Assembly: GCF_028583425.1 (NCBI RefSeq)
Contig: NC_072794.1
Span: forward strand, 26,781,232 to 26,845,231
Source: Eublepharis macularius
Lineage: Eukaryota; Chordata; Lepidosauria; Squamata; Eublepharidae
Reading direction: 5' to 3'
Length of the DNA stretch: 64,000 bases
Below the pieces are notes generated by a model. The model had not been told where the DNA came from, searched no databases, and saw nothing but the letters and a program-made list of their open reading frames with translations. The position numbers and the translations under genes are program-made. Each line of letters opens with the position of its first letter. Position 1 is the stretch's first letter. Of the stretch, positions 17,601 to 61,672 are shown in pieces.

Positions 17601-20600
17601 ACAGTGGTGTCAACAATTATCCTTGTCCCTGATGAAGGATTTTTTAAAACAATAATTATACATATTTATCATTATCTTAATATAACATTCCCATTACTTC
17701 TAAAAATTTAAATAGGATGCCCTGTTGTAAAAAACCATTTCAGCAAAGGTTCATTCTTCAAATACCTCCGCCCCAAACAGACTGATCAGCTCCTCTGTGC
17801 TGATTAAAGTTGTGGGTGTGGTCTTCATTCCAGAGAGGAGAAGACTGCAGGTTTGGATCCAGTCTATGCATTCTGTCTGGAAAGAAAGAAGAGAGACGAC
17901 AATTAGGAGGGGAGGGGGGAAAAGAACAGGTTTCATTGTTCTGTACCTTTGCATCCTGAATTATGGTGTCCTTCCAGAGTTCTCAGACAGAGTGACTTAT
18001 GCTTTAGAGTAATAATCCCCAAATTTGTGAAACTCTACAAGTACGGTTGCCAACTTCCTGGAGAAAAAAAATGTCCCATCCGTTTCATAGAGATTCGACA
18101 CAAAGTTATTTACCAGGTAAAATTTACCATGAAAAGCTTCAGCTGCCTGTTTCCACAAGTTAAGGAATAGGGCATTTTTCTCCAGGCAACCCTATCTGTA
18201 ACACTTTGCCTGATTCAATATTAGAGCTCAAATCCTCCTCACATGCTTTCGTGTGTACACACACCCTGTCTGTTTTTGGTGTCCACTAGTAACAGCATCA
18301 CCAGTGGGTAGAGTTGCACACTTGCCAGCTCAGAGACTCTTGGGGCACCTGCTCTCTAGCCCCATCATCCTCTTCCTGGCTAGAGCACACCACGATCTCC
18401 CAGGCACCTTTGCAGCAGGAGTCTGTGATGCAATCTACAAGTACACATTTCATAAATACATATAAACAAAGGGCCTGGGAAGTAATAGCCTTTGCCCTGC
18501 CAGTGCCTTCCTGTAATTGCAAATGTTTTCAACCCATGCCCCAGGCAGCACCAAAACCCTAACTGCAACTTCCAATTACTACCAGAAACAATTTCATGGC
18601 CCTATAATTTAATTTAATTTATTGGATTTATACTCCACCCTCCCCACATCAGCTGGACTATAAGTACACACCTCCACATATTCCTGATTTCTTCTTCACA
18701 ATCCTCTCCATAAAATAATTCACCTCCAGAATCACAGACAGATGATACTTTTGCCCCACCTTGTGGTCACTGTGTCACAGATTTCAGCCTCTACTTTTTC
18801 TAACTGGGTTGGGCTCATACAATTTGCTCCCCGTATTTAGATCCACCTAGACCTTATTGTGGTTTTTGCTCAGTTTTAATTCTCTGAATAGATACCATGC
18901 TTAGTAATACTATTCTGTAGAGATACTTGAACAGTTATCAACCAGTTAGCAACTGTATGTAGTAAATTGTCGAAGGCTTTCACAGCCAGAGAACGATGGT
19001 TGTTGTGGATTTTCCGGGCTGTATTGCCGTGGTCTTGGCATTGTAGTTCCTGACGTTTCGCCAGCAGCTGCGACTGGCATCTTCAGAGGTGTAGCACCAA
19101 AAGACAGAGATCTCTCAGTGTCACAGTGTCACTGAGAGATCTCTGTCTTTTGCTGCTACTCCTCTGAAGATGCCAGTCGCAGCTGCTGGCGAAACGTCAG
19201 GAACTACAATGCCAAGACCACGGCGATACAGCCCGGAAAATCCACAACAACCAATGTATGTAGTAAAGTTAGATATCATATGATGTAAGTAGAAAATGCT
19301 TGGCTGAAAACTGGGATTTCTCCCCTGTGTATGGCTACGTTTGCACATCTGGGCAACTGTAAACAAATCTCACACAATTTCTGTAATCAGTAAAGACTTG
19401 CAAAATACACTAGTTGCATGCAACACATAGTTAAACAATCAATGACACGCTGCCAGAAACAGCCCAAAGCCTGCCCACAAATTGCAAGAACCAGCCCAGT
19501 TGCTACAAGAGGATGAAACATGCATATACTCCTGGACCCAGAGAAGGAGACTCACTAAGACCCAGTGAGCACATAAAGGCATAGGGGCAACTATGAAATC
19601 CCAGGTAGTAATGGGAGCAAGCTCTAATTTGGACTTCTCCTTTGGCACAATCTCCTTTCACTCTCTTCAGGTGATCAGTCAACAGGTTATTCTGCACATA
19701 TTAGCCCTTATTCCAGTAAGTTTACTCTACTGCTTTGTTATCCATGCCTGAAGAAGACCACCTTAAGACATAAAAGCTTGCAATAATTTCAAAGCCACTA
19801 GCGGTGTCACAAACCAGAGTATTATTTCACCTGTTCTACATCTTGCTTTTCTGTAGGACCAAATCCCCAGATTTGGGACTATGCTGTTTTAAAAATAAAA
19901 TAAAATAAAATAAAGGATGGGAGAGTCATGTGATCTTACCTTGATTTTTTCCAATTGTCTCAATTCATATTCTGCATCTGGATCAAAATTAGCCAGTTTC
20001 CTACGTGTTATCGATGTAACCATATCCTTGCAGCAGCTGAGAAAACAGATTGTGTCACCCAAACACAATGTCCATCTTTGATAATGTCAGTGTCAATACC
20101 AGTTGTCTTCTAGTGAGGTTTTGCTTCAACTAATTTATTTACTTTTTATTTATGTTATTTACAGTCTGTCTTTCTCACTGAGACCCAAGACAGATTACAC
20201 AATGTAATCTAGGCAATCAATAGTAAGCAATGTAATAGGAATAGGAATTGCAGAAATTTGAAATGGAGCTGTTGTCTGAACAAAAAGTAAGTATTAAACA
20301 TGACATGCTAAACAATTCAGAAGATGGTATTACATCAGTAGAAACACTGTACATTTTGATGGTTGTTGGGGGTTTTCCGGGCTGTATTGCCGTGGTCTTG
20401 GCATTGTAGTTCCTGACGTTTCGCCAGCAGCTGTGGCTGGCATCTTCAGAGGTGTAGCACCAAAAGACAGAGATCTCTCACTGAGAGATCTCTGTCTTTT
20501 GGTGCTACACCTCTGAAGATGCCAGCCACAGCTGCTGGCGAAACGTCAGGAACTACAATGCCAAGACCACGGCAATACAGCCCGGAAAACCCCCAACAAC

Positions 20601-21187
20601 CATCGTTCTCCGGCCGTGAAAGCCTTCGACAATACAACTGTACATTTTTCTGGGCCAATTTGTGGTGATGCAGCCCTGTTTCCTTTACAAAAATGCCTTT
20701 GTGAATAATTCTGGTTTGCATAATTTAAAAATGTCAGGAGCAGAGAAGCCTTCCTGAGCTCTATAGGCAGGCCTTTCCACAGGGTGAGGGCTACTACAGA
20801 GAAGGCATGTATGTGGACATCCATGGAGCGGTAGCTGCAGAAGGCCCTGCATGGATGAGTGAAGCTGCATCAGAATGTCAGAAAATGCTACACTGCCTGT
20901 AAACCATCAATATATGGGATGAGCTCAAAGGCTAGCTTTAGGCACTCTTTTAGATGTATGTTCAAAATGTATGGACACCATCCTAGCTCTCCAGGATGGT
21001 TCAGCAGGCAGGGAAGCAGGTCAGATAGGCAGGGAGATGGATATGCAGGGTTCCTGGAGGTCCATGCAGCTGGAAGTTGATGTCCGGAGCCCCATCACGA
21101 GAATCTGGGACTCTGGATGGCCAGGTTTACCCAGCAGCCAGTCAGGCTATAATCCAGATTTTATACAACACTTTTCGGGGCGCACCT

Positions 21188-21218
<31 letters not shown>

Positions 21219-24200
21219 TCCCTCTGATCTTTACAATAATCCTGTAAAGTTGGTATTTTTATCCCCGTCTTGCAGATGAGGAGGGGGGATTTGAGGCTGA
21301 GGGAGAAGGGCTTGAAAGAAACAGTGCCCCAAAAGGCCAGCTCAAGGGCTGAATCCTAACAATGTCTGTATAAAATATAAAACTTTTAAGTCTCTGGTGT
21401 ATAAGATTGTCATCTGGCCACTCGTGGGGTGTACCTGTACCAAATCACCTCCCATGCTCTGTCAACAACCTCTGCAGGTTTGCAGCAATATCTTCATTAG
21501 CTTGGATCCTCTGCAATGGGAGCAGAGCTATGCAGCACAAATGGTAACTTGCGTGCCTCTCCTCTCCTGCTGCAGTCATCCACACCTCCCCAAACTGTTC
21601 CCCTAGGGGTCAGTGGGTCCCCAGGAATATGATGGGGTCAAAACAGGAGGGGGGGTGCAAGAAGAAGCAAAAATCAGCAATAAATTGCACTCTCATAAAA
21701 CTTTTGTGCCTGGCAAGACCTCAAGAGGCAGATGAGATTCTGAGGGCTAAGCTGTACCTGACGATGTAACTGGAGAACTTGCTGAACTTGACGGCCAGGT
21801 TGGCAGCTTCTCCTTCCAGCCTGAAAACGTCCAGCAGCTTGTGCTCTGCCTGCCTCACGACTTCTGCATCGGTCAAGGGAAGAGTCTCACGAGAAGAGTG
21901 GTCGGGCACCATGATGAGCAGCAGGTTCACCATCCAATTACTCAGAATGTTGTGGAACTCTGTCATCTGCAGGAAGAATCAAGCAAGGGAGAGCCCCGCT
22001 CAACTAAACTGGCAGGGCAAATGCGAAGGGTGTCTCTGCATGAGTTATTTGCTCCAAGTTCGATGCTGTTCGGAAGCATTCCGCGCGCACACACACCCAG
22101 CCCCTGATGCTTCCCTAGAGCACCGTGGCGCATTTGTGCACATCAGTGGGGGTGGAGGAGGAGTTCCTGGCTTGTCTCTGATCTTTCTCAAACTTGCTTT
22201 GCTCCAAAGTTTTTGGAAAGATCATAGCAAAGTCTAGATGACCACTATGAGGGTAGAAAAGTCTAGATTTTCCTGGGCCCACCCACACAGTAGCCATTTC
22301 CTCTCCCTACCGCAGAGGCGTTTTCTTTTTTTTTAATATTGACAATTTAATTGTCTTATGTTGATATACTGTTTATACCAAAATACGCGTCAAGTTCTTT
22401 GAATTCCTAGCTTTCATTTGAAAAAGTAAGTGTTTAGCCCTTTTCTTTCAGAGAAAAGCATATTTCCACAATGAAATGGGCTAGAGACTTGTCTTTTTTA
22501 AAATGAAAGCTGGGAATTCAAAATGAAAGCTGGGAACCTGATGCATATTTTAGCATAATGGTATATTGATATAATACTATTTAGTCTCCAATTTAAAAAA
22601 AACTACCAAGGAAACCTACTGTGTGGAAACCCCATTGCCCCTGGACTGGATTAGCAGCTGCAACAGGGAAAATACACAAGCATGTCCCCATGTGGAAAAC
22701 ATCCAAGGCACACCTACTTGGGAGCAAGTCTCACTGATTTACTAGCAAACTTTCAGTTTGTAGAGGTCACCTACAAAAACAATATACTCACAGTTGCAAA
22801 TTTCATATAATTTTGGGCATCGTTTAAAGAGAACAACAAATAAATCCTGGCCTTCAACGAATGGCCTTCAATCGTTTCCAAACCCAGGATCCACTAATTT
22901 ATAACAAGACAAACGTTTAACTTACTGCTTTATATATAACTTACCTTTATTGTACCTACCTACATCTTGTTCTCTGTCTCTCGTCTTCTTTGGACTCTTC
23001 CGACAACCTTGTTGGGTTGCAACATAGTGAAAATGCATGTGGGAGGTGACAAGAATGCTTCAGCCTGCTGCACTGCAGGATTGGGCCCTAGCAAAATTTT
23101 TAAATTGCTTTAAAACGTGGCCCTGTGCATGGGTCAGACCAAATCTAGTTTGGCCCAAAGATGCAGCAGAATTAATGCACCCCTCAAGGGTGGCTGCCTC
23201 ATGTGTGTCTGCATGAACTATTGCCCTGGGCTTGCCTTGTTCCATTAAAACACACATGAAGGAACTCAGGGCTTTTTTTCAGCTGGAACACAGTGGAACG
23301 GAGTTCCGGCACCTCTTGAAAATGGTCACATGGTTGGTGGCCCCGCCCCCTGATCTCCAGACAGAGGGGAGTTTAGATTGCCCAATGTCTGGAGAGCAGG
23401 GGGCGGGGCCACCAATCGTGACCATTTTCTCCGAGGGCAACCCACTGAGTTCCACCGCCTCTTTTCCCAGAAAAAAAAAGCTCTGGAAGGAATTCATATA
23501 AAAACAAATGAAGTAGGCTCTGCTGAAAACATATAATTGTTATCCTTACACATAAGGAGGTTTGTTTTTAGAGTGTGCAAGAGTGGTAATTGCCTCCAGT
23601 TAACTCAGGAAAAATACCTGCTTTATTGGAAGTTTAGCAAAAACCGGTATACGTACTTCCTGGGCAAGTTGGACGTTTCCTTTCTCAGACCCATTAGTGG
23701 CAGTCAAGATCCACTGCTGAATCTTCTTGAATATATCTTCTGGTTCCACCCTTAAAAAAAATATGTTAATAGTGTAGCTTCATAGTTTTATAATCCTCAG
23801 CCCTCCCAAAATATACTCAGAAGAATTGTCAAATTATCTGCTAAGAAGAGCGTTTTACACTGTGGAGCTCATGCTATATGAGAGTCACCGTTCTAGCAGC
23901 AACTCCAGTGCAGCTGGGGGAGTCATTCAGGACCTAATCATGAGACTGGCACCAGGGCAAGGGGTGGGGATACACTGTGCAAAAAAGATTTGCTCCTGCC
24001 AGTCATTCTAGGAAAAGGTGCAAAAAAATTGGCTAAAATCTTTACTGAACAACTGTCTCAGAATATGAAAAACAGCACTGAAGTGTGGAAAAGCAACAGC
24101 AAAGGGGAAATTAATTCAATTCAGTTCCCATCACTTGTTTTTCCCAAATGGACTCAGGCAGCTGTTTTCTGCTTGATATGGGAAAAGGTACGGACAGGGT

Positions 24201-27200
24201 TCCTGTATATTCTCCCTTGCAGGAGGAACAGGTGTTCTTGGGAAGGAAGATTTTGAGCCGGAAAATAGGAGGGGAAATGTTCTCTCCCTCCCCTCTTTAT
24301 TTGCCAAATGTGAGGCTATTCAGGGGAGAACTCTGCTAAGGCCTCTGCTGCTGTTCACCTTGTCAGAGGGAGCCCTTGCTTGGGTCTTAGAAGGTAGAAA
24401 ATGGACCTGCAGTCAATGAGACAACAGATCGGCTATTGACTGTGTTTTCAAATTGATGGTTTCCTTGTTTCTTGGTCCCAGGATTCCAAGGGCATACCCT
24501 GATACCATCCACATCCAGTGCTTGTCATTCTACATAGAATACTGGCAAGTCTTAAGATCACGACCTGAAAGAACTTGCTCCCTCTTTTTATTCTTTAACA
24601 TCCAGTCAGATAAAGAGTTCTGAAGAACTCAAAAGCTTGCATACTGTGTTGTGCTATTTTGGCTGATCTTAAGAAGAGGTATTACATCTATTTTTATCTT
24701 ATTTACATAGTTTATACCTCACCTTTCTCTCCAGTGGGGAGAAAGCAGTTTACACCATTCTCCTCTGTTTTATCACAACAACCTTGTGAGGTAGGTTAGG
24801 CTGAGTATGTATAACTGGCCCAAGCTTCGATGGCAGAGTAAGAATTCCAACTTGGGTCTCCCAGACTGTAGTCCAAGACACAACACCATGCTGGCTTTCA
24901 AATGGCACATGCCATTTGTTTTTGGATTCGGCTATGTGCCAACACAACTACCTACACTTATTGCTGCCATATGACTTTTCTAGCACAGATACATCAGTTT
25001 TCAATGCATAACACAAAAGAAAAAGGTTCTGTCACAAGACAGATAAAAGTGCTCAAGAGAAAAAAAATTGTTGAATGGATCTCATCTTACGGGGCATTAG
25101 TTGTTCTAAGCCTTCGGTCCTCTGGAGTTTCGCAAGTACCAATGAACTTCAACAGATCAGTTATCTGAAGCAGCCAATCGCTAACAGTTTGGAAAAATTT
25201 CACCCAGTCACTTTCATGCATCCCAGATTTTTGCTTGCTGGCTAGCATTCTGAATGTCCAGTCTTCCAAACCGTTGATCAAACTTGTTAAAATCCTGGTG
25301 ATCCCTGGAGAACATACAAACATAAACACAAAAATAAACAAACTCTGGGATCTAGCAGGACAAGGGGAATTAACACAAAAGGCACAACACAGATTTAAAT
25401 GTACCTGAAGTTGCAATTACGACAAGCTGCCATTGCTGCCAACTATTTCAAAAGGAGGGGGTAAGGACACATCATCCTATTGTCCTTAACTAGTATTCAC
25501 AGAAGCCTCTGGAAAAGCAGGCAGCATGGGCCGCTGCCCCTGCCACTTTCTCTGAGAAAGGCATGGTGTCAATTCTCAATCCTGTCCATGGCTTTTGGGG
25601 GGATGGTACTCATCAGTGCAGAGTACCAGCACCTTTTTTCAGGGCTCTCCCAAGTCCTGAGGGAGGAATGGTGGAAACCGGTGCAAATGAATACTGGTAC
25701 CCCTTCTTTTATAATACAAAAAAGCACTTATCCTATCTAAGGACCAAACTAGATATAACAGCTGGAGATGCCATCGCCATTTTAAAGTGATTTTAAAATG
25801 CTACAAGGACCCAATCCTGATCCCACAGCGTGGCACTCTTTTCCCCCTCAGGCCACCACACTGTAGGACACGAAGACACCATCATATCTAGCTTGGTCCT
25901 AAATACTAGATCCTACAAGTGATGCTGAAGAGCTGGCCACGTGCATGAAGAGTCAGTGTGGGAACTGGGCAGGTATGTCTGGGATTGCCTGTTTCCCTTT
26001 TGTGTATATGGCGCTCCTTTGAAAGTCAAACCAACAGAGAAAGAGAGAGGAATAGGAAGTGACCTGGACTAAAGGAAACTCACAGGTTACCTGCAGACAA
26101 TGAGAGGCACAGCTCTAGCACTGCAAAACACAAGAGAATACCTTACCCCGATTATATTACAAGGACAAGCATATTGTCCCCCCAGCATCCAAGCATGTGG
26201 AGTGCCCTCGTTCCAACCATTTTAGCCTCACAACAACCACCCGGTGAGGAAGGAGGCTGAAAGAGAGTAATGGCTCAAGGTCTGCATAGGACTAGGGGTG
26301 TGCACCGGGAAAATGATTCAGAATAACCCAAAACTTCATATTGGCCCCAATTCGGAAATACCAAATCTTTACAAATCAGGCCCAGTTCGGATTTTTTTTT
26401 CCGAACTGGGAACCCGAAGCGTACACCCCTACATAGGACCCTGCTATACGTGACATGTGATACAATGGACATGTGACTGTGAGTCAGGTCAAGGAACCCT
26501 GACTCACAGCCATGCTTCATTGATGCCCCCACTTTAAAACTGCTCTCTTCCTTGGTGTGGCTCAGAGCACTGAGAGGGGGTGAGCAGGGGCTTCTGCTTT
26601 CATTCCTGCAACATTTTTCCTCATGGAAACAGCTGCAGGGGGGCTTAGTTTGCCCATTCCTCTGGCTCCTCATGTCCTGGGATTATGTGAGAGCGGGACC
26701 ACAAGTGACGCCTGACACAGGTTGGACACTTGCCAGCTTCCCTCAAGTTTTGATGGGAAATCTAGGCAGCTTGGCAGAATGTTGGACAAGTGACAGTTGA
26801 AAAGTCCATTGGACAGCAGTCGGAGAGCCAAGCTGCAAGACCAGGGTGCCTACATTCCCCATCAAAACTTGAGGGAAGCTGACTAGTGTCCAACCTGTGT
26901 CAGGCGTCACTTGTGGTCCCGCTCTCAGAGAGGACATGTGACACTCGAGGGACAAATGGCTTCTTGGGAAAACAATGTGGGAGGGAAGCCACAAGCCCTT
27001 CCTTCCCCTCTGCTCACAGTGCTCCAAGCTGCACTGAGTGAGAGAGCAGCTTTTAAGGTGAGTTCATGATGTAAATGTGAGCTGGGTTGGGAGACCCCTG
27101 ACCCCACTTGTGTCACATAGTTAGACTCCCAGTGAGTTTGACAACTGCCTGGGTATTGGCCTGGGGTCTCCCCATTGGTAGTCTGGCCCTCTAACAGAAC

Positions 27201-33200: not shown

Positions 33201-36200
33201 ATTGTTTCAGATTAATAATAATAACAACATTTGATTTAAATACCGCCCTTCAGGACAACTTAACACCCACTCAGAGTGGTTTACAAAGTATGTTATTGTT
33301 ATCCCCACAACAAAACACCCTGTGAGGTGGGTGGGGCTGAGAGAGCTCCTAGAAGCTATGACTGACCCAAGGCCACCTAGCTGGCTTCAAGTGGAGGGGT
33401 GGGGAATCAAACCCAGTTCTCCAAATTAGAGTCCCACGCTCTTAACCACTACACCAACCCGTTAAGTCACTTTGGGGACTCAAATGATGGATTTTTTTTT
33501 TAAAATAAGTCACTAATAATGCCACAAGCACCAACCAATAGTTGACCATCAAACCTTCAAGATCACAGTATACACTGCACTCCAAATGAAAACTGCATCT
33601 TTCTAAAAATAAAAATGTAGGAAAGAATTGACTGACTATTTAAGGATAAATACCACAAAGAGTGTTCATCCAATAACAATCTGGGAAGATAGTAAAGCCT
33701 GTGTAAGAGGAACATTGGCTGGATCCACACATACCGGCATAGCGCTAAACTGTCGCAATGCCAGCGTCTTCCTGGCGCGATTTCTGATGTCATCGCACCA
33801 CGATGCTGCTCTCGTGGCGTGATGACATCAGAAATCATGCCAGGAAGATACTGGCATTCCAACAGTTCAGCGCTATGCCGGTACGTGTGGATTCAGCCAT
33901 TGTTAGCAATAGTGTCCAAAAAGAAAAAAAAAAGCAAAGCTGGAAGTAACATATAAACTAACTCAAAAAAATTTTTTTTAAATAAGTCACTAATAATGCC
34001 ACAAGCACCAACAATAGTTGACCATCAAACCTTCACGACCATAGTATACACTGCACTCCAAATGAAAACTGCACCTTTCTAGAAATAAAAATATTATAAT
34101 ACACTGCAAGAGATCCACCACCTGGGGAAAAGGGTATAAGGCAAAACAAGTCAAGTTCGTGCAGGTCACCAATGAATGAAAGTTTGATGTGATGTCTAAA
34201 TGCAGCTAGTACAGAATAAAAAATAACATGTTCATTCAGTGAGGTTAAATAAGATAACAATGTGCAAAGACTAGAATATTAACCCCAAACGACACATTTC
34301 ATAAAAGAGAAAATATTAAAAACGACAAAAACGGTGCTCTCAAGCGGTCTCCAGTGGAAACACCAAACCATTCAAGGGAGAGGGCTCTGTCATCAGAAGA
34401 GAGAAGACTGAGTTTCTTTCTTCAGCTACCTTGAGGGCCAGATCATAAGTAGCACCACTCCACAGTTCCTTCTCTTCGGTTAACTGGTGAATCTGGGCCT
34501 CGAGTCTTGCTCTCTGCAATTCATACAGTTCACGGTATTCATCCAAAAGGCTTGAGAGAGTAAGACATGAGATGTTAATTCAAAGAGCACTCTGCCGTTC
34601 CCTTCACCAGGGATCTGAAATCCGCCTACATGGCATCCAATACAGATGACTCCTCTCACCCAAGATCTGAGTTTCAATTAAATTCACATTCTACAACGAA
34701 GCTCACTGAGTGACCTTGGGCCAGAAACACACACACCTGCCTCGCAAGGTTGTTGTGAGAATAAAATGCTGAAAAGAGAACTGGATTCCATCCTGAGCTC
34801 CGTGGGAAAAGATTGGGTAAAATGCGCTAGACTATCAGGACAATTTGCCAGGAATGAGCTTATTTAAGAAGTAGGGTGCATTTCTGAAGAAAAATTGGTA
34901 AACAGCTTTTTTTTTTTAAAGCATAGTTTGAAAAGGCTGAACGCAAATATTCTGTTTACTAAACTGAATTCTCAGGTGAAGACCTAGAGAATTTGAATTA
35001 AAAGTCCAACCTGGGGACTGTCAAGCAGATGTCTACTTTCCTCAGTGAACATTAATTCCCAGGTGTTGCGGGGGGGGGGGGCTGATTCAGATCAGGGCTG
35101 CAGCATGTGAAGAAAGGAAGCTTAAGCCTCCTCCTGTACTGTTTTTCCACCCCGGCTTGAAATGACCTCAGGAAGCTGTCATTGCCATATTGGGCTGATA
35201 CTGGTGTGGTGGCTTACATGTAATGCATCACAGAGACGGCTTAGATCCTCTTGCACAGCAGTCCTAATCCAAATCAGGCTACCGCCCATTGGGGAATCTT
35301 TTACCTGGGAATTCTCCGGGCGTTTCTGCTTGACAGTTTCTGGATGGACTGAGGGATTGCCCTGGGAACATTGTATCGTGTGATCAGTCCCTAATCAGTC
35401 GATCAGAATGCTTGCACCAGAGAAAACAGGTTAGATAAAAAGCAATGGAAAGCTGCTAACTCAGCACAAGTAAATAGCGCCAATACCTGATGCTGGTGAT
35501 AAACTCTTCTGGATGCATATCAAATAACTGGAGTTTTCAGAAAGGGAAATGGCAATGCACCAAAGCCCACAAATGAAGAATGAATCAAAGTGCTTGCACA
35601 TTATCACTTCCAACATTATAATGATTTCTGCAGTGTTTTCGTAGTGAAAAAAATGTTCAAATTATGAAAAAAATAAGCCTCGTGATGCAAATTGTAACTT
35701 ACTTTTACTGAAACATGGTGATTTATAGCAACCATCAAAGGTGTGCTCTTGACTTTGTTCAAGAATAACACAGCTACTTCTTTAAGATTATCAGGGGATG
35801 ATGCAGAATAATCACATCTTTCAAGCCACATGCCGCTACTTACTGTCCCCTCCAACCCTCACCGGTTAAAAGACCTACAAATTGTCTGTTACCCTGGGTT
35901 TCCCAAATCCCAGTCTTAAACAGGATTTGGGGGAACCCTTAAACAAAACTTGGAATGTGACACCATTTCAAGACACTTGCAAGAGGGTTGGAAAGAAACG
36001 AATATTATACCGCAGGTTCAGATTGTATGGGTCAGATACTTTGACAGCTAACGATGGAACCTTTCACTAGTGCAACACACCTCTTTCACAGGAGCATAGA
36101 TGCTTGTGCCCATGGAAGGCTCTGCCATTAGTGGAATGGAATCAGAGGATCCCACCCCATACTGTTTAATCTGGAACTCACTTTGCATTCAACTCAGAAT

Positions 36201-42200: not shown

Positions 42201-45200
42201 ATTTTTTAAAGTTTTGTGAGAAAGTTCTCTGGGTCACAGCATTCAACAGTGTATTTATTAGTTTCAGTCCACTCCTACTGCAGGAGCAGAGCTTGAGGGA
42301 CTGTATGTGGCATAAGAGCTCTGTCACACAATGTGCATTTCCCCCCACAATGGATCCTGAATGGTAGAAAAACTGGATGTTGAGCATTCATTACTCTAGT
42401 GGAGAACATTTTCAGAGCCTAACTTGCTGTCAGGGTCTTGGCATCCCCTGCCATACTTCAGGGGCTTGACAACCCCCCGACCTGAAAGCGTAAGAGCCTG
42501 GGCCAAGGACTGGACTCTAATGGACATTGTGCTCTTATGTTAGAGACAGCTGTGGCTGTCCTGTGGAAGCGTACAGAGGAGGGGGGCCCTCCCAAGCTTA
42601 TCTGCCTCTCCCCTGAGAAGAAGAACTGTTGTCATGGATACATAACCTTGGAATTCCTGAACTTTCTAAAACATCCTCTTTGGTCTCATCCGTAGTTGCT
42701 TTGCTTTTGCTTACATATACACCGTAGCTATTAGGGGATGGGAAGTGGGAACCTAGACTAGGCTGGCAACTAAGGAGGGTGGGAACTGGGCTGTACTTAG
42801 AATTCAATTTAGACTTGAGGCTTGGCGCAGAACTTCATTCCTGGCAATGAACCTGTAATGGATTGCTGAACGAGGAGATTATCAATAAAGCTTTAACTCA
42901 TGCAGTTCTGGACTCATGTAGTGAAGTCATTGAGATCTACCTGGCAGAACCTTACACTTGCTTTATAAGACAATAGGGCTACACTGGGGTACACATATTT
43001 GAGAGACCACCTCGGTATATGAGTTCACGTTGCAGCTCTTCTTGGCATTAACGTCATCTATTGGTGATTCACCTCCACACACAAAGGTGTGTTCTGCTGC
43101 TGCCTGTTTATGCACTTTTTCTGTGGCTGCCCTGGCCCTTTGGAACAAACTCCCAAAGGAGAGGAGGGTCTCTGCTCTGAAGGCATTTCACAAAGGCTGC
43201 AAAAACTAAGCTCTTCAGGAGGGCCTCTGGGGTTCCCTGATACTGGAGAAGGTCTAAGGATTTATCAGCTGCCTGGACTACTTGGGCATTGATCTATTAA
43301 GTGGGTACTTGCTATGTGTTTTATTGATAATTGTTTTACTGTTTTATTATCCTTATTTATTTGGTTATTCATTGGTTACTCACTCTGGTACCAGCTGAAT
43401 GGAAGCAAAGGGTATAAACATTTTAAGCAAACAAATACAAGAAAAGCCTGGGCTTTAAGCCAGGAGTTAAATGATGTGATATAGGAAACCTAACTAGGTG
43501 CTTAGGGCTTCTTAAATGCATGCCTGTATCTGAATCAAGCCTGACCAGAGCCACCCAGATTGTTCTTAGACACACTGCCCCCTCTGGTTTACTTATTATT
43601 TTGTTTAGAACATTTTTATGCCACCTTTTCAGGAATCTGCCTGAGGCAGTTTACAAAATAAAAATAATTAAAAACAAATTAAATTATGTATTGTCAAAGG
43701 CTTTCACGGCCGGAGAACGATGGTTGTTGTGGGTTTTCCGGGCTGTATTGCTGTGGTCTTGGCATTGTAGTTCCTGACATTTCGCCAGCAGCTGTGGCTG
43801 GCATCTTCAGAGGTGTAGCACCAAAAGACAGAGATCTCTCAGTGTCACAGTGTGGAAAAGATGTTGGCAGGTCATTTGTATCTACTCAGGAGGGGTGGGG
43901 TTGAGTTGAGTCATCCTGTAAGAGTTTCCCAGGGTGTGGAATGCTAATGGCGGGAGACTTCACTGTATCCTGAGGAGGTTCTTTTGCATATGGATTGGTG
44001 CTTGATGTGCTAATCTTCTCTGCAGGGCTATTGTCGAGTATAGATATGCACCCCACAATATCTAGTGTATGCACCCCACAAACCTAGTGTATGGTTCCGG
44101 TTTGTGGATGATACATTTATCATTTGGAGCCATGGGGAGAAAGAATTGATGGGGTTTTTGAATCATCTCAACAACATCCACCTGAACATACAATTCACAA
44201 TGGAGAAAGAAACCGAGGGAAAACTCCCATTTCTGGATACCTTGGTCATCCGCAAAGCAAACTTTCAGTTAGGTCACAAGGTCTACAGGAAACCAACTCA
44301 CACTGATCGGTACTTACACAAAAACTCCAATCACCACCCCCGACAGAAAAGAGGCATAATGAAAACATTAGTGGATCGTGCCAGACGGATATGTGAGCCG
44401 CACTTTCTCAATGAGGAAATTAATCATCTAAACCACGCACTTCAGGCAAATGGCTACTCCAGAAATGAAATCCAAAGAACAATCAAACCCAGGATGAATC
44501 AAACAACCAAGGAAAAACAAGTCTCCTATGGGAAAAGTGTTTTTGCCATATATCAAAGGAATTACTGATCAGATGGGAAAGCTTATGAAAAAGCATAACC
44601 TTCATGCAGTATTCAGACCCACCCGAAAAATACAACAGATGCTACGATCAGCAAAAGACAGTAGAGACCCCCTCACCTCTGCAGGAGTATACCGTATACC
44701 CTGCAGCTGTGGACAAGTTTACATCGGGACCACAAAGCATAGCATCCAGACAAGAATAAAAGAACATGAAAGACACTGCAGACTTGGACAACCTGAAAAA
44801 TCAGCAGTGGCTGAACATAGCCTAACTCAAACAGGGCACAGTATCTTATTCCAAGACACCAAAATACTGGACAACACTTCCAACTACTTTGTCAGACTGC
44901 ACAGGGAAGCCATTGAAATTCACAAGCATAAGCAAAACTTCAACAGGAAAGAAGAAACCTTAAGAATGAACAGAGCATAGTTTCCAGTTCTGAAAAACAC
45001 CAGGCTAACAAAACATTCTATACTCGACAATAGCCCTGCAGAGAAGATTAGCACATCAAGCACCAATCCATATGCAAAAGAACCTCCTCAGGATACAGTG
45101 AAGTCTCCCGCCATTAGCATTCCACACCCTGGGAAACTCTTACAGGATGACTCAACTCAACCCCACCCCTCCTGACTAGATACAAATGTCCTGCCAACAT

Positions 45201-48200
45201 CTTTTCCACACTGTGACACTGAGAGATCTCTGTCTTTTGGTGCTACACCTCTGAAGATGCCAGTCACAGCTGCTGGCGAAACGTCAGGAACTACAATGCC
45301 AAGACCACAGCAATACAGCCCGGAAAACCCACAACCACTATCAAATTAAATTATGCTAATTAAAATCCAGCATTAAAAAAGACAACTCAACATAAAATCA
45401 TAGATAATTAAAAAAACCAGACAGCTTAAAAATAAGTTATCTGACTAAAATAGCATTTAAAAATCAGCTCTTTAATTACTAGATACAGTGCAAGCCGTTA
45501 AATGACAAAAGGAAATAGGATCATACTCACTCATCGTAATACTCCAAGCCTATCACGCCTCTGTTCTTTACTACGTGAAATTCTTCTGGGACAAGACTGT
45601 TTCCTATATTTCCTGTCTAGAAATAGAACCAGGAAGAGCCGACCTTACATATGAGATGGTCTCAAAGCACCCACATATTCCCCTCAAAGGAAATTTGGTT
45701 TTCAAAGTTTATATGGGATTACAACTGCAGACAAAATCCATACATAAAGCTTGAATACCTAAACTGTGGTTAACATTAATATTGATTTACTGCAATAACC
45801 CTGTTTAAGCTCACACATGTATGACTGGCAGTCTTGTGGCCATTTTGGGCTAAAAAGTAGAATAAATTAATTCCAAAGAAGTTTCAAACCTCCATTTTGC
45901 ATTCTGGGAAATGCAGGCAATGCTGGTTTAGAAATTCAGAAGCAATGATTTCAGAGTGGTTAGGAAAAACAAACAATGGCTTTAAGCATTATGTCTACCA
46001 AGGCCCATTTAGCATGGTTTGAAATGGGCTGGCAAATGCATTTTAAAAGAAATTGTTTCATGGATCCAAGTGGCCAGATTGGCTGTGTCAAGGTAGGGGG
46101 CCATCTTCTGGGCTAGTCTTAGTTGGAAGAAGGCATTTTTTGCAGCTGCATTAACTTGCTCCTCTAACAACAGTGCTGGATCCAGTATAACCCCTAAGCT
46201 CTTAACCAAGTCAGCAAGTGTCAACTGAACCTCATCAAAAGTGAGGAGCACAATATCCTTCAAAATCTCTGCCTTCCCAACCAGCATTACTTCCAACTTG
46301 ACTGGGTTCAGATTCAGTTTGTTTGTTTTCAGCTATTTGACCACAACTGTCAGGCAACAACCCAAGATCTCTACTGCATCACCTGGGGATTTAGACGGTG
46401 AGATACATTGCAAAAACAGTGCAATAACTCCACAGACAGCAGCAGAAATGGGAAAACGTCTTTCCTCCGCACAGTTTTTGTGCAAGGAAAAAAGCCTGGG
46501 GGAAGGCAGGAGCCCTCCCTCTCGCAGTAGCAGCTTTCCAAGCCCATTTGCCCTCTCCTTTTTTAAATAGAAGCCATTCCCCTGAGCTGCTGTGTGACCG
46601 CGTTGAGCATGGGTTGGCTCTATGGAGAACTCATAAAAGAAGTAACATCTAGTTTGGCTATCAGTTGCCTTGACAAGAAGGAAAAATTAAACTCACTGAT
46701 TTGACCACCCCTGTTTCCTGCTTCAGATTTGTCCCGGATGCAGTCTTATCTGGCTCAGGAGTTGGGGGAGGAGTCCTTCTCTGTTTTTCAGCAATGACAT
46801 CATATAGAAAAGAGACATCCCTTAAGAAACATAAAGAAACCAAACACTCTGTTGAGAAAGCACTTTTGCTTCAGGCTAAGTATTCAGACTTGCACAAAAT
46901 AAAAGATGCTCTGGAAGACACATCTGGTATTCCCTTACCTGAGTACACTGCCTCAAAAACTCTTGCCTGCAGTTGTAATCCCATATCCTCTTTGGGTATG
47001 TTGGCATTAGGCCCCAGTGAAACAGTGTGGCCACATGGTCTCTGGCTCCCTTCCTCCAAGCCAATTTGTTGCTATATAATCTTTTCCCTGTGTTTCCCTC
47101 TTATATGATATAAGAATCCTGCAAGCCCTCAGACTCTATGGATCCTAGTAAGATGGTTGCCAGTAAACCTCCATTTTGGTTAGCCTTTCTCTTCATTCTC
47201 CATCTCAAGTACTGGACCAGTTTCTGTTTTCCCTGTCTTAGCACAGGTCAGGCCACAGGTTTCAGCCATGGCAACAGTAAAAGTAGGACAGTCAGTAGGG
47301 GGAGTGAAGCCACACCTCATCTCATCATACTTAATGATAAGCAGCTCCAGAGAGAAGATGGGCCTTGCCAACTACCTACCTCTCAGATTGTTAATCAAGA
47401 CACTCATCTATTAATCAGGGAACTTAGCCTCAACAAAGATCCAACTGTGATAATACTCTGCTACAGAAAGAATCATCTGTTGCAGTAATTCATCTTATTA
47501 AAATGTTCTTGGTTCAGATTGATTTAATTTGGATGGTTTGGATTCCCCACCACCCAGCCCCCAAAGATATCCTGACCTTCCCTAGATTTCCTTATCTGGA
47601 AATACCCAAATATTTCCAGCTGTCTCCCCCTCCTCTCTTTCCAAGCCTGGAAATAAAAGAATATATTTTTAACTCATACCTCCTGCCCCATAATTGAAGC
47701 CTGAATCTGCCCCTAAAGGGAACCTGAAAAGGGTACCTGTGCTTGCCCAGGATGACCCTTTCCTTTTGAACTATGAAGCCCCTAGTTTGTGATGCTGTCC
47801 ATCTCATTCAATTACTTTTTGGATTATAGTCTGAGCAGACACTTGGAACCCTGCTTGGGAAACCAGACTTTTGCTGAACCATGTAGATAGGTAGCTATAC
47901 TAAATTCTCTATCACTCACATACTCAATTTCTCTCTTTGACTTCTTGCCTCCCCCTCTTGAGTGGAGCACACTGCAAGACGAGTGAGTATTTGGAATATT
48001 TATTTATTAACACATGCTTCCTGGGAGTGTGCTAAATGCTTGATATTATTTTGACCAGTTGAGTTGCTACTTGTCCACACCCACTGCATGAATCATTCCT
48101 TTCAATAAAACTTTGTTTCTGATTTCACAGTATCTGCAGTCTCTGTTTTCCTCCCACAGTTGTAGAGAAGCCTTGCTACTTTGTCAACAGGTTCCTTAGA

Positions 48201-53284: not shown

Positions 53285-53519
53285 TTTCCATATTTCAGCG
53301 CCCCCCCCCCATGGTATTTTAAAGTTTAAATTGCCCTCAGCGAAAATGGTCACATGGCCAGTGGCCCTGCCCCCTGATTTCCAGACAGAGGGGAGTTTAG
53401 ATTGCCCTCCCTGCTGCTGATCTGTCTGGAGATCAGGGGGTGGGACCACCGGCCATGTGACCATTTTCAAGAGGTGCCAGAACTCCGTTCAACTGCGTTC
53501 CTGCTGAAAGAAAGCTCTG
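53285..53519. mobile_element. hAT MITE, one end lost
   Basis: Right end is the inverse of CAGAGCTTTCTTTCAGCAGG. The interior palindrome (AAAATGGTCACATGGCCAGT and its inverse) matches 23267-23485 in opposite orientation. The left terminus is replaced by a C-run. Confidence 0.7.
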
Positions 53520-53535
53520 ATAAAATACATAAACC

Positions 53536-54760: not shown

Positions 54761-55403
54761 CGATTTTGTATTATGTTGGCGCATGCTCCTGCACCAGTCA
54801 TCTCATCGGCTCCAGTGTTGCAGAAGTTGAAAGTTATGCTAAAAAATAAAAATTATGCCTAATACTAGATTTTTTTTAGTTTTCTGTCCATTGTTCCCAG
54901 AACTGGGCAGCTCTAAATAAACTAGGAGATTGGAGAAGAGACCAGCTCGACACAAAAAATACAGACTGCTAGGAAATGTGCAGGTTGAACTGATGGATTT
55001 GAGGTGCGGGTGTCTTGGTATGGTGTAACACCTAGCAGCACAGGAGGGGGTGCTGCCTACAAACCTAGAATTTTGACTAAAGGAAGGGGTGAAATGGCAT
55101 ATCCAATTGGGAAATAACAGTGCAATCCTATGGAGAGTTACTCCAGTCTAAGCCTATTGAAGTCAATGGGCTTAGACTGGAGTAACTCTCCATAGGATTG
55201 CTCTGTAAGGGTGTCAATGCCTATGGAACCCGGGCATTTTTTTCTAGTATTCGTCTTCTACAAGAGCTGTTAGTGGTTTGAGAGATCCTGCAAGAACAAG
55301 GCAAACTTATTTTATAGGCTGGCTAAGGCCAGGCAAATTAGGAGCTTTACCCATTCACTGGAAACATCTGCAGTCATTCTGCCATGAAAACACACGCTAA
55401 GAT
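54761..55403. other. Intergenic upstream of AXDND1
   Basis: Mostly unrecognised; contains the 80-bp palindrome at 55122-55201. Confidence 0.4.
55122..55201. repeat. 80-bp near-perfect palindrome (mini-MITE)
   Basis: GCAATCCTATGGAGAGTTAC and TCCAGTCTAAGCC with the exact inverse after a short centre; one mismatch in about 38 bp. The motif is common in squamate DNA. Confidence 0.8.
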
Positions 55404-56302: not shown

Positions 56303-56420
56303 CAGCCTATTGTATTTATTATTTATTTATTTATTTATTATATTTCTATACCACCTCATCAAAGTCCTGGTTAAAGTGGCTTACAATTAAAAACTACGGT
56401 ATTTTTTTAAAAGCCATTAA
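56303..56420 (-). repeat. L2-type 3' tail
   Basis: TATTTATTTATTTATTATAT, then ACCACCTCATCAAAGTCCTG and GTGGCTTACAATTAAAAACT. Confidence 0.5.
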
Positions 56421-56499
56421 AAACAAGCCACTGGACATGAGCAGCATCAACTACCCATAAAACAGAAGCAGACCTTTAAAAAGCATGATGCTGATGATA

Positions 56500-57240: not shown

Positions 57241-57300
57241 TGAAACCCTGGGTTAAAAGATGTGTTTTAGCTGGGCACCTTAAAAAAAAAAGGTTAAGTA

Positions 57301-57452
57301 GGGCCATTTCCACACACGTTAAATAATGCACTTTCAATGCACTTTCATAATCCTTTAGAAGTGGATTTTATGTTCCACACATGGAAAATCAGTTTCTAAT
57401 CTTCACTAAAGAGAATTGAAAGTGGATTATCCAACATGTGTGGAAGCAGCCT
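57301..57452. mobile_element. MITE with imperfect inverted ends
   Basis: GGGCCATTTCCACACACGTT at the left versus the inverse of GGCTGCTTCCACACATGTT at the right; TA on both flanks. Internal ATGCACTTTC repeats. Confidence 0.55.
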
Positions 57453-58760
57453 AGGTGCCAGGTGAGCCTCAAGGAGGAGCACATTCCACAGGTGAGGTGC
57501 CACTACAGAAAATACCCTGTCTCTAGTCACCACCACCTCATCTTAGGGCCAAGCGACAAGTGACGAATGACACTTGAACGGCAAGTGGATTGAGTGGAGG
57601 GCAAGTGAACAGGGAGAAATACACTTGCCGTTCTAGTGTCATTCGTCACTTGTAGCTTGGCCCTCAGAGCACAGACAGCAGAGGGCTTGAGATGCAGATC
57701 TTAACCATTGAGCTGGACAGTATGGGAGGAGACAGTCCTTCAGGTACCCTGGCCCCAAAGAGTTAATTGCCTTAAAGGTAAGAACCAGCACTTTGTGCCC
57801 AGAATAGATGGGTAATGAGAGCAGATCTTTCAGCAGAAGGGTGATACAATCAATGAAATCAACCCTTGGCAGTAGCGCGGCCACCACATTTTAGACCAAT
57901 TGAAGTTTTTGAACAATTTTCAAAGGCAACTTCATGTAGAGTGCATTATAGTAATCTAATCTGGATATGATCAAAGCACAGATGGTGGCGGCCAGATCAC
58001 ACATTTTGAAGAACAGTTGTAGCAGGAGAACCAGCTGGAGCTAATAAAAGGCACGACATACCATGGAGGAGACCTGAGCCTTCAACTGCAGGCCAGAGTC
58101 CCGTCGCACCCACAAGCTACACACCTGCTCCTTCAGGGGGAGTGCAGCCCCTTTCAGGAGGGACTGGCTCTGCGGTCTCCAACCAGCTTCTCCATTGACC
58201 AACAGCACCTCTGTCTTGTCGGTACTGAGCTTCAGTTTACTGGCCCTCATCCATCCTATTATCTTCTCTAGGCACCTGTTCAGGAGTTCCACAGACCCAC
58301 CTGGTTTAGCTCTCAAGGAGAAATAGATCTGAGTGTCATTGGCATATTGGTGGCACTTCCCTCCCAAAGTCTGGAAGATCACTCCCAGTGGTTTGATGTA
58401 GATGTTAAACAGCATGGGGATTAAGAGGGAACTGTGCTGGACCCCATAGCATAAAGGCCACAGGGCCAAGCAGCAACCCCCCCACCCCCGCCCCACCTTC
58501 TGGCATTGGTTAGTCCAGGAAGTGTGATGCCTCTTCTCCCAGCCCAGCCCGCCTCTCCAAAAGGATACCATGGTCAGTGGAATCAAGAGCCATTAAGAGG
58601 TCTAGGAGAATCAACAGGGACTCACATTCCAGCTTTCACTGTCCCAGCAATGGTCATCAGTCAGTGACCAAGGCTGTTTCCATCCCAAAACCGGGCCTGA
58701 ATCCAGATTGAAATGGGTCTAGATAATAACTCATCCAACAAATGAAGACAATGTTTATGC
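57453..58760 (-). mobile_element. L2 LINE, ORF2 part, broken, with nested MITE
   Basis: Minus strand in order: LILLDLLMALDSTDHG near 58600, HQYANDTQIYFSLRAKPGGS, IGWMRASKLKLSTDKTEVLL, then near 57800 FKAINSLGPGYLKDCLLPY. RT palm and C-terminal motifs in order, with frame breaks. The MITE 57544-57666 interrupts its 3' part. Confidence 0.82.
57544..57666. mobile_element. Palindromic MITE, family B, nested in L2
   Basis: AGGGCCAAGCGACAAGTGAC then GAATGACACTTGAACGGCAA at the left, inverse at the right (one or two mismatches over about 45 bp). Its termini match family A at 2116-2355 over GGCCAAGC-ACAAGTGACG. Confidence 0.82.
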
Positions 58761-59667: not shown

Positions 59668-59995
59668 TGGGGCTATGGCTTAAAGGTGGAATACCTGCTT
59701 TGCACTCAGAAGGTCCCAGGTTCAATTCCCAACATCTCCAGTTAAAAGGACCAGGTAGAAGGTGATGGGAAAGATCTCTGCCTGTGATCCTGGAGAGCCA
59801 CTGCCAGTCAGATAGTGCTGATCTTGGCAGACCAACGGGCAGCTTAAATAAGGGGGTGGTTCAGTGGTAGAGCATTGCTTTGCATGCATAAGGACTCCGG
59901 TTCAATCCCCCTCATCTCTAGTTAAAAGGATCGGTTAGGTGGTATGTAAAACCTCTGCCCAAGACCCTGGAGAGCTGCTGCCAGTAAGACACTCA
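59668..59995 (+). repeat. Two tandem tRNA-derived SINEs
   Basis: 59668-59850 and 59851-59995 each have a head (GGGGCTATGGCTTAAAGGTG; GGGGTGGTTCAGTGGTAGAG), box B (GGTTCAATTCCC; GGTTCAATCCCC) and CCAGTTAAAAGGA-like body. Same orientation, abutting. Confidence 0.75.
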
Positions 59996-60330
59996 GCTTG
60001 GGAAATTCCTGAAGATTTGGGGGCTGTGCCTAGGTAGGGAGCTCAGTGGGGATTGCCTCGTCAATCTAAGGCTTCAGTTCCTCCTAAACTCTATGGTATG
60101 CCATCGTGTGCACCCTCTGAAGCGGCCATTTCCTCCAGGGGAAGATGCCTTTAAAATGGAAGCATCAAGATGTGCTCTTCAAGGCATCTGATGAAATGAG
60201 CTCTGAGATTTATGCTGGAATAAATTTTTAAGGTGAATCCTGACTCCCGTTTTATTTTGCTTTTACTGACTCACACGGCTACTCATCTGGAATTACCACT
60301 GTGAAATATTTTATTTATATAATATATAAA

Positions 60331-60332
<2 letters not shown>

Positions 60333-60367
<35 letters not shown>
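60333..60367. repeat. (TA)n microsatellite
   Basis: About 17 uninterrupted TA units with a shorter run just after. Confidence 0.9.
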
Positions 60368-60370
<3 letters not shown>

Positions 60371-60454
60371 TTATATATATATGCCAATAAAGGCTTGCTT
60401 GACTGACCACTGTGAAATGTAAACGTTTCATGTACTTTGTCAAATCACAATGGG

Positions 60455-60590
60455 TAGCCATGTTTGTAGCAGTAGAAAAGAGCAAGAGTCCAGTAGCCTG
60501 AAGAAGTGAGCTGTGACTCATGAAAGCTCATACCCTACCACAAATTTTGTTAGTCTTACAGGTGCGACTGGACTCTTGCTCGTTTATGTT
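60455..60590 (+). repeat. Penelope-type 3' tail
   Basis: CCTGAAGAAGTGAGCTGTGA, CTCATGAAAGCTCATACCC and GTTAGTCTTACAGGTGCGAC. Flanked by an inverted GAGCAAGAGTCCAGT / ACTGGACTCTTGCTC pair. Confidence 0.6.
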
Positions 60591-60739
60591 AAATGTTCAA
60601 ATGTGCTTGATTGCCACATGGATAGACCTTGAGATCTGAATCGTTTGGTTAATTGAATCTTTCTGGCATCTCCGATGTGGCGATGAGGTGTTTATTAAGA
60701 GTAACTTTGTTTCTGTAGAGTTGTCTTGCCATTCCAGTT

Positions 60740-61472
60740 AATGAATCCATCTATGGTACTCCAAAAGCTTGCATCACTCTATCCCAGAGGAAGTTAAGAG
60801 AAAAAAATGTGGAGAGGGAGATGTGCCTTCCTACCTAGGAAGGCAAGATGCCCAAGGGATGGAATCATCAGGAAAGAAGCAAATCAAGGCAGACAGAAAT
60901 GTCCCAATACCAGGAAAAAAGTCATTTCCCACATGGTTTCAAGACCTATCTTGGGACTAATGGATACACAGTTGGAAGATCGGCATGGGATTTTATTTCT
61001 ATATACGATTACAGCAGCTGGGCTTTTGTATGCACAGAAATGGAAAAATATGGAATTACCTTCAATAGAGGACTCGATTATGAAAATGACAGTGTTAGTG
61101 GAGTTGGTGAAACTAACAGCTTTGATCAGAGACAAAACATTGTCTATCTTTTTGGTGAACTGGAAACCCTTTATTGACTTTTTGCACGACATGACGAATA
61201 ATGACTTGATGATTTGTGGTTTTGATCATTAAGAAGACAATGGGGGAATATAAAACAAATAGAAGGGAGGCAGTAGTCGAAAAGAAAATTTTGGAGAGAT
61301 TGTAATTTTGTTAAAATAAGACAAGTGTTGTAGAGAAGAATGGAAATGAAGTATTTTTTTTTCTAAGTTGTTTTTTTCCCCTTCTCTTGCTTGTAAGCTT
61401 TCTTTACTATTTTTAAAACTTTTTCTTTATTCTTGTTTTCTGCCCTGTCTATGGGCTTTTATTTCTATTAAT
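60740..61472 (+). mobile_element. L1 LINE ORF2 C-terminus and 3' UTR, truncated
   Basis: ITAAGLLYAQKWKNMELPSI then DSIMKMTVLVELVKLTALIR and WKPFIDFL match the L1 ORF2 C-terminal region (AAR-L-A--WK---P). Ends in a T/A-rich 3' UTR with AATAAAATAAAAATAA. Target of the Penelope mini-element at 61486. Confidence 0.75.
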
Positions 61473-61485
61473 AAAATAAAAATAA

Positions 61486-61672
61486 TGGTTGTTGTGGGTT
61501 TTCCTGTATTGTCAACTGTGACACTGAGAGATCTCTGTCTTTTGGTGCTACACCTCTGAAGATGCCTGCCACAGCTGCTGGCGAAACGTCAGGAACTAAA
61601 TGCCAAGACCACGGCAATACAGCCCGGAAAACCCACAACAACCATCGTTCTCCGGCCATGAAAGCCTTCGAC
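61486..61672. mobile_element. Penelope-derived mini-element 3, one arm shortened
   Basis: Perfect 13-bp target duplication AAAATAAAAATAA (61473-61485, 61673-61685). The left arm is cut to GGTTGTTGTGGGTTTTCC plus a short centre; the right arm is complete with hammerhead-like core and tail (CATGAAAGCCTTCGAC). Inserted at the A-rich end of the L1. Confidence 0.85.

What the first reader, a model, noticed from the sequence alone, without database searches (positions are those of the whole stretch)
18967..61672. Penelope-derived mini-elements: inverted terminal repeats that move without coding sequence
Four insertions (18967-19254, 20358-20636, 43689-45341, 61486-61672) each have a perfect 12-14 bp target duplication. 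Three carry no coding sequence, only the terminal repeats in inverted orientation, yet have their own target duplications, so they inserted in that form rather than decaying in place. The 43689 copy with RT and GIY-YIG sequence shows the parent family. Inverted terminal repeats are known in Penelope elements; a compact, separately mobile palindromic class looks less described and resembles metazoan retrozymes.
Basis: partly seen in the sequence, partly recalled or inferred. Interest (0 to 1): 0.78.

Follow-up and report, generated by a model that had tools for sequence, protein, structure and literature searches.

The report
Two-ended Penelope insertions make palindromes
The short palindromes are real, abundant insertions of a Penelope-type jumping gene, and they look like direct products of an insertion process that starts DNA copying from both sides of the cut site, not like a separate self-copying class.

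Summary
The four insertions are real, each with a perfect 12-14 bp target duplication. They belong to a young, abundant Penelope-like element (PLE): one 34-base arm word occurs 31,162 times in the 2.24 Gb source genome. Coding-free head-to-head palindromes are common: 3,554 matches in one size class, against 111 in the opposite orientation. The outer ends match, in place and ~30-nt spacing, the two reverse-transcription start sites reported for the Anolis PLE 'PAc'. All 36 distinct two-armed insertions that I resolved pair one 'tail' end with one tailless end; in the counted size class about 80-84% detectably do, with 22 exact both-tail matches. In 16 of 16 palindromes compared on contig C1 the centres differ; one centre recurs among copies picked for likeness to E1. 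So each palindrome was probably made at its own insertion; a separately mobile palindromic class is not supported. Best explanation: both 3' ends of a staggered cut prime a cDNA at the two start sites, probably on one RNA, and the cDNAs are end-joined. Inverted pLTRs with a tail on one of them were already described; the strength of the rule and this reading of it I did not find. Shared template and RNA 5' ends remain inferences.

The parts
18967..19254 (.). E1, 288-bp palindromic insertion: tail arm 18967-19125 (sense on - strand), tailless arm 19126-19254 (sense on + strand)
18954..18966 (.). E1 target duplication, left copy (TGTATGTAGTAAA); right copy 19255-19267
19164..19198 (+). minimal type I hammerhead motif of E1 right arm; the left arm's copy is 19086-19052 on the - strand
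   Evidence: regular-expression scan; the core motif itself is recalled
20358..20636 (.). E2, 279-bp palindromic insertion: tailless arm 20358-20480, tail arm 20482-20636
20346..20357 (.). E2 target duplication, left copy (ACTGTACATTTT); right copy 20637-20648
20513..20547 (+). hammerhead motif of E2 right arm; left arm's copy 20449-20415 on the - strand
43689..45341 (+). E3, 1,653-bp insertion: tail arm 43689-44044 (-), 5'-truncated ORF part, tailless arm ending 45341 (+)
43675..43688 (.). E3 target duplication, left copy (CAAATTAAATTATG); right copy 45342-45355
44044..44980 (+). ORF remnant of the parent PLE in two overlapping frames (end of the reverse transcriptase with FVDDTF, then the putative GIY-YIG region)
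   Evidence: frames; RVT_1 found on homologous copies L036 and L031, not on E3's own piece; GIY-YIG by eye only
45251..45285 (+). hammerhead motif of E3 right arm; left arm's copy from 43810 on the - strand has GAAAT for GAAAC
61486..61672 (.). E4, 187-bp insertion: tailless stub of about 20 nt (61486-61505), a short junction, then a tail arm 61515-61672 (+) with a hammerhead motif from 61556
61473..61485 (.). E4 target duplication, left copy (AAAATAAAAATAA); right copy 61673-61685

Best explanation
The elements are insertions of one Penelope-like retrotransposon (Penelope/Poseidon type) made by two-ended target-primed reverse transcription. A staggered cut leaves two 3' ends about 8-16 nt apart. 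Each 3' end primes a cDNA on element RNA near the start of the ORF, one at the inner (tailless, R~325) and one at the outer (tail, R~356) start site. Both cDNAs run towards the RNA's 5' end, through the hammerhead. Their free ends are then joined, and gap filling yields the target duplication. If both cDNAs stop a short way upstream of the ORF start, the product is a coding-free palindrome of about 250-320 bp; if one runs on, the product is a longer element with inverted pLTRs such as E3. Shown by sequence: ends, orientation, tail pairing, target duplications, junction variety. Inferred: the polarity of the cut, that both cDNAs are copied from one RNA molecule, who does the joining, and that the pile-up of inner ends at R188-225 reflects RNA 5' ends.
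For: (1) The ORF start lies in the hammerhead and the cut site 26 nt after the start codon, as in PAc; the two outer ends lie at about ORF+84-87 and ORF+115-118, ~30 nt apart; PAc starts reverse transcription at two adjacent sites, the commonest at ORF+111-118, with the 'tail' between them, and cleaves and extends both strands in vitro (I had no PAc sequence to align). (2) Tail pairing: 36 of 36 distinct two-armed insertions are tail/tailless (29 after dropping 7 duplicate rows of 36; E4 by eye; 6 long ones). None of the 40 scored best matches to E1 shows a second full tail. One size class genome-wide: 3,554 palindromes, 1,531 + 1,500 tail-side hits, 22 exact both-tail; independence would give about 646 both-tail. 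First 50 listed places: 44 discordant, 3 both, 3 neither. (3) Orientation: head-to-head 3,554, tail-to-tail 111 at the same spacing. (4) All 36 carry 8-16 bp target duplications. (5) Junctions differ in 16 of 16 palindromes on C1; 6 of 8 junction insertions of 10 nt or more match the element better than each of 200 shuffles. (6) Arms within one element differ by 1.16 sites against 2.34 between elements (0 of 5,000 permutations; 25 of 29 elements). (7) In E3, L015, L037, L087 and L088 the tailless arm reaches further in while only the other arm has the tail, so neither is a copy of the other.
Against: Some both-tail palindromes exist (22 exact; 3 of the first 50 places). About 545-611 of 3,554 have no detected tail, through mutation or as true tailless pairs. 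One-armed insertions with target duplications of 10-14 bp exist (L010, L023 at 5141, L054 first arm, L073), so two arms are not obligatory. PAc in vitro showed no difference in start site between strands; pairing within one event is not reported in the parts I read. Similar arms could also reflect gene conversion. Inner-end agreement (median difference 2 nt) could come from annealing of self-complementary ends as well as from one template. Arm length falls gradually (21,773, 18,575, 16,053, 15,123 at R196/192/188/184), so a sharp RNA 5' end is not shown. Two of eight long junction insertions, and two of two shorter ones tested, were no better than shuffles.
Confidence: 0.74

Rival explanations
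1. Self-priming (snap-back): one cDNA or an antisense RNA folds back and copies itself, giving inverted arms, as proposed for bdelloid Penelope elements.
For: Proposed in PMC3846280 from palindromes at inverted junctions. Many palindromes here are near-symmetric at the centre and the arms are alike.
Against: A copy cannot gain a tail its template lacks: in E3, L015, L037, L087 and L088 the shorter-reaching arm has the tail and the longer-reaching arm lacks it. Plain self-copying predicts tail/tail or none/none pairs, yet about 80% or more of the counted size class are discordant.
Confidence: 0.13
2. A palindromic non-autonomous family, moved in trans by the PLE protein and copied from palindromic masters.
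For: Thousands of short palindromes, those examined with own target duplications. One centre recurs exactly in E1, L002 and L005, with one substitution in L004 and L006, and with two extra G in L085.
Against: 16 of 16 palindromes on C1 have different centres. Carriers of the recurrent centre belong to different arm subfamilies (GTGGATT, GTGGGTT, GGGGGTT), and it is what annealing of two similar cDNA ends over a near-palindrome could give.
Confidence: 0.08
3. Deletion derivatives of long inverted-pLTR copies, or assembly artefacts of hairpins.
For: Long inverted copies exist (E3, L033, L035, L038, L040, L048/L049, L060/L061). The first part of C1 carries duplicated insertions with the same flanks.
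Against: Each of the 36 distinct insertions has its own target duplication; outer ends are intact while centres vary; similar structures occur in random 10-kb samples.
Confidence: 0.02

Closest known systems
Poseidon/PAc of Anolis carolinensis (Frangieh et al. 2024, PMC11167929; main text parts 1 and 2 of 4 read)
   Same: ORF start inside a minimal hammerhead with the cut 26 nt after the start codon, two adjacent internal RT start sites (commonest at ORF+111-118) with the 'tail' between them, AT-rich targets, both target strands cut and extended in vitro.
   Different: The parts read describe tandem copies; they do not mention coding-free palindromes or how the two start sites pair within one insertion. 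No PAc sequence was held for alignment.
Penelope elements of Adineta vaga with inverted pLTRs (PMC3846280; passages read)
   Different: Low-copy elements, mostly with ORFs; explained there by self-priming. Here there are thousands of coding-free forms and a quantified one-tail rule that simple self-priming does not give.
LINE-1 twin priming (recalled)
   Same: Two target 3' ends each prime on one RNA and the cDNAs are joined head-to-head.
   Different: In twin priming the second priming is internal and opportunistic and the segments do not overlap; here both arms start at two fixed sites ~30 nt apart, so the arms overlap and form a palindrome.
Metazoan retrozymes (PMC7229834; passages read)
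   Same: Small, coding-free, hammerhead-bearing, possibly moved by PLE enzymes.
   Different: Retrozymes are direct tandem repeats with canonical type I hammerheads and circular RNAs; these are inverted, carry the minimal PLE hammerhead, and have varied centres.

Membership tests
Penelope-like element (Penelope/Poseidon type) | Reverse transcriptase ORF | tested here: met
   PF00078 at 1.3e-12 in the homologous copy L036 and 1.5e-11 in L031; E3's own short piece gave no RT hit.
Penelope-like element (Penelope/Poseidon type) | GIY-YIG endonuclease | tested here: inconclusive
   T5orf172 at E=0.032, below cut-off; no PDB sequence hit; single-sequence model pLDDT 50, not searched. Motif [14 protein letters not shown] by eye, recalled.
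Penelope-like element (Penelope/Poseidon type) | Telomerase-like RT phylogeny | not tested
   No tree was built.
Penelope-like element (Penelope/Poseidon type) | Minimal type I hammerhead overlapping the ORF start | tested here: met
   Core motif in the 7 full arms of the window, one with GAAAT; spacing as stated for PAc. Sequence motif only; no Rfam hit at gathering score and no activity test.
Penelope-like element (Penelope/Poseidon type) | pLTR with optional ~30-bp tail, inverted pLTR, short target duplication | tested here: met
Retrozyme | Direct tandem repeats of the hammerhead unit | tested here: not met
   Of 18 neighbouring arm pairs under 700 bp among the first 100 listed hits, 16 were -+, 1 +-, 1 ++.
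Retrozyme | Circular RNA intermediate | not testable with these tools
   No transcriptome data.
MITE / foldback DNA transposon | Symmetric terminal inverted repeats and fixed-length target duplication | tested here: not met
   Termini are asymmetric (tail/tailless) and target duplications vary 8-16 bp.
LINE twin priming product | Non-overlapping inverted segments | tested here: not met
   Arms overlap in 28 of 29 insertions over most of the shorter arm; in L015 they share only about 10 nt.

The most novel reading that the evidence does not exclude
Penelope-like elements normally integrate by a symmetric two-primer, one-template reaction: a dimeric enzyme places its two reverse transcriptases on the two adjacent start sites of a single RNA, each extends one strand of the cut target, and host end joining seals the two cDNAs. 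Inverted pLTRs, the single tail and the palindromic mini-insertions would all be signatures of this one reaction, which differs from one-sided LINE or R2 target-primed reverse transcription.
Probability: 0.45. Interest if true: 0.82.

Novelty: new variant of a known kind. Interest (0 to 1): 0.6.

Why it matters
How Penelope-like elements complete integration, and why their terminal repeats are so often inverted, is described as open in the two papers I read most of. A genome with tens of thousands of young arms gives a quantitative rule (one tail end and one tailless end per insertion, head-to-head, varied joined centre) that ties the genomic structures to two start sites measured in vitro and makes a two-primer mechanism directly testable. 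It also explains an abundant source of genomic palindromes without postulating a new non-autonomous family.

Tried and rejected
Two viral contig scans for the arm found nothing. Rfam had no hit at gathering score in the window. A single-sequence structure model of the putative endonuclease was too poor to search. The idea that the inner ends mark a sharp transcription start at R192 (Inr-like CCACACT, recalled consensus) is only weakly supported: 34 of 40 inner ends lie in R188-225 and 11 in R191-195, but the genome-wide decline is gradual. Snap-back copying and mobile palindromic masters were considered and disfavoured (see rivals).

In the 40 regions L041-L080 around consecutive arm-word hits, 12 loci are two-armed within the stretch (8 distinct), 4 loci are the ends of 2 long insertions, 3 loci hold solo arms (L054 two, L072, L073), and in 21 the far end lay outside the stretch and was not scored. 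L081-L088 were picked because the arm word occurs twice in them, so they cannot inform the share of two-armed copies. L031 and the single-ended L030, L032, L034, L036, L039 were not scored either. L054's second solo arm showed no target duplication and L072's was only 6 bp. Central junctions of the six long insertions were not examined.

Full report
Check of the observation. The four insertions are present as described. Each is bounded by a perfect direct repeat of 12-14 bp; for each of the four none of 300 random placements of the same span in the window gave a repeat as long. Inverted arms are 128 nt at 97% (E1), 123 nt at 100% (E2) and 326 nt at 98% (E3). E4 has one full arm and a stub of about 20 nt. 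A relaxed blastn with the arm found no further significant copy in the window.

Anatomy. In sense orientation an arm reads: a hairpin-prone leader, then CTGAAGATG...GGCGAAACGTC (a minimal type I hammerhead core, recalled; the ATG sits inside it), then an AC-rich stretch ending ...CCACAACAACCAT, then, at one end only, about 30 bp ending ...GCCTTCGACAATA. I number positions on a 358-bp arm reference R: ATG at R241, cut after R269, tailless ends at about R324-327, tail ends at about R355-358, i.e. ORF+84-87 and ORF+115-118. The published PAc element of Anolis has the ORF start at stem II of the hammerhead, the cut 26 bp after the start codon, RT initiation most often at ORF+111-118 in an AC-rich stem loop, a second adjacent start site, and a 'tail' that is the sequence between the two (PMC11167929, main text parts 1 and 2 of 4). 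The correspondence is by position and spacing; I had no PAc sequence to align. The arms point outwards, head-to-head.

Abundance. The window lies in a 2.24 Gb genome, G000. An exact 34-base arm word occurs 15,533 + 15,629 times, control 0. Twenty random 10-kb stretches (200 kb) held four insertions: two palindromic (L015, L023 at 874) and two single arms (L010, L023 at 5141), all with target duplications (for L010, 1 of 300 random placements was as long). The 40 scored of 1,871 candidate copies of the RT-endonuclease part are 95-99% identical to E3 over most of it, and some keep long open frames (551 codons in L031, 602 in L036), with RVT_1 at 1.3e-12 in L036. The family is therefore young. 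The GIY-YIG domain is by eye only.

Pairing of ends. In the fetched loci a script found 36 rows of adjacent minus/plus arms; 7 are duplicates of a locus or of flanks, leaving 29 distinct. E4 (by eye) and six long insertions (L033, L035, L038, L040, L048/L049, L060/L061) bring the total to 36. All 36 have one tail end and one tailless end, and all have target duplications of 8-16 bp. They are not a random sample: 4 are from the window, 7 (L002-L008) are best matches to E1, 5 come with best ORF matches (L033, L035, L037, L038, L040), 2 are from random stretches, and 18 are from arm-word hits on contig C1, 8 of these picked because the word occurs twice. The broader test is the pattern count for one size class: GGTTGTTG-N225-255-CAACAACC gives 3,554 (control 22); with tail letters required on one side, 1,531 + 1,500; with exact tail letters on both sides, 22 forward and 21 reverse. 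If the two ends were independent, about 646 would be both-tailed. Allowing four times the exact count still leaves 80% discordant. Of the first 50 listed places, 44 are discordant, 3 both, 3 neither. The opposite orientation at the same spacing gives 111; the control column of that call reads 617, because that pattern read backwards is itself a head-to-head pattern of one subfamily.

Centres. In 16 distinct palindromes from C1 (L041, L050, L052, L053, L056, L063, L076, L080 and L081-L088) no two centres are the same. Inner ends over the 29 range from R316 to R-966. Of eight centre insertions of 10 nt or more, six match the element better than every one of 200 shuffles; L086 and E4 do not, nor do the two shorter ones tested. 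This resembles template-copying end joining (recalled, polymerase theta). One centre, CTCTCAGTGTCACAGTGTCACTGAGAG, recurs in E1, L002 and L005, with one substitution in L004 and L006, and with two extra G in L085. L002-L008 were chosen for likeness to E1, and the carriers belong to different subfamilies, so I read it as repeated annealing of two long cDNA ends over a near-palindrome; common descent of some is not excluded.

One template or two. Between the two arms of one element the mean difference over R226-323 is 1.16 sites, against 2.34 between elements, 0 of 5,000 permutations reaching the observed total (25 of 29 elements usable; without L002-L008 1.17 against 2.19, also 0 of 5,000). At the subfamily sites R315 and R312, 24 of 25 pairs agree (15.4 and 19.0 expected). 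Inner ends of the two arms agree closely in most of 20 palindromes (median difference 2 nt, Spearman 0.82). Both fit one RNA copied twice, but gene conversion, or joining at self-complementary stretches, could add to either.

Why not self-priming. Self-priming was proposed for bdelloid Penelope elements, which have inverted pLTRs and a 31-bp tail optionally on one of them (PMC3846280, passages). A copied arm cannot extend beyond its template. In E3, L015, L037, L087 and L088 the tailless arm reaches 22 to 967 nt further inwards while only the other arm has the tail, so neither arm is a copy of the other.

Mechanism. If a staggered cut offers two 3' ends, each can prime a cDNA at its own start site; both cDNAs point inwards, giving head-to-head arms, tail or tailless termini and target duplications in one step. 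PAc extends both strands in vitro. Target duplications here are 70% A+T against 55% for the window, in line with PAc's AT preference. Because the start sites lie near the 5' end of the ORF, a template that begins shortly upstream yields only a short arm on each side: the coding-free palindrome. Of 40 inner ends in 20 palindromes, 34 lie in R188-225. Genome-wide 20-mers starting at R196, R192, R188 and R184 count 21,773, 18,575, 16,053 and 15,123: the losses per step are about 15%, 14% and 6%, which only suggests RNA 5' ends around R190. Single-arm insertions with target duplications (L010, L023 at 5141, L054 first arm, L073) show that one side can fail or be lost.

Verdict. The short forms inserted as such, but as products of the autonomous element's own reaction rather than as a self-propagating palindromic class. 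Inverted pLTRs, a tail on one of them, and PLE hammerheads are known. Searches of the held library, and the passages read, did not show the one-tail/one-tailless pairing counted as a rule or the two-primer reading of it; Cervera and de la Pena 2014, Craig et al. 2021 and Schostak et al. 2008 were not held, so absence from print is not established.

Noticed in passing
window 2116-2355 and 26688-26927: Two members (91% identical, 240 bp) of another near-palindromic, MITE-like family with termini TGAGAGC...ACAAGTGACGCC; 57541-57668 shares the terminal ~30 bp at 86-90%.
   Followed up: partly
window 53342-53468 and 23318-23429: A second foldback pair (about 78% identical), with no match to the PLE in the window comparison.
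   Followed up: no
window 33711-33904, 55117-55206, 2679-3066: Further foldback sequences with 44-93 nt arms, families not identified.
   Followed up: no
G000 contig C1, about 1.3-7.2 Mb (L041-L080): Several PLE insertions here are duplicates with identical flanks, some in inverted orientation, so this chromosome end seems rich in segmental duplications.
   Followed up: partly
L054 106-227 and 649-782: Two separate single-arm insertions a few hundred bases apart, apparently inside one LINE-like copy; the sequence next to the second resembles the flank of palindrome L063 (94% over 71 bp).
   Followed up: no
control column: 617 head-to-head places with GTTGTTGG and CCAACAAC, i.e. both arms of the GGGGG subfamily, which would fit both arms sharing a template; not tested against the subfamily frequency.
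   Followed up: no
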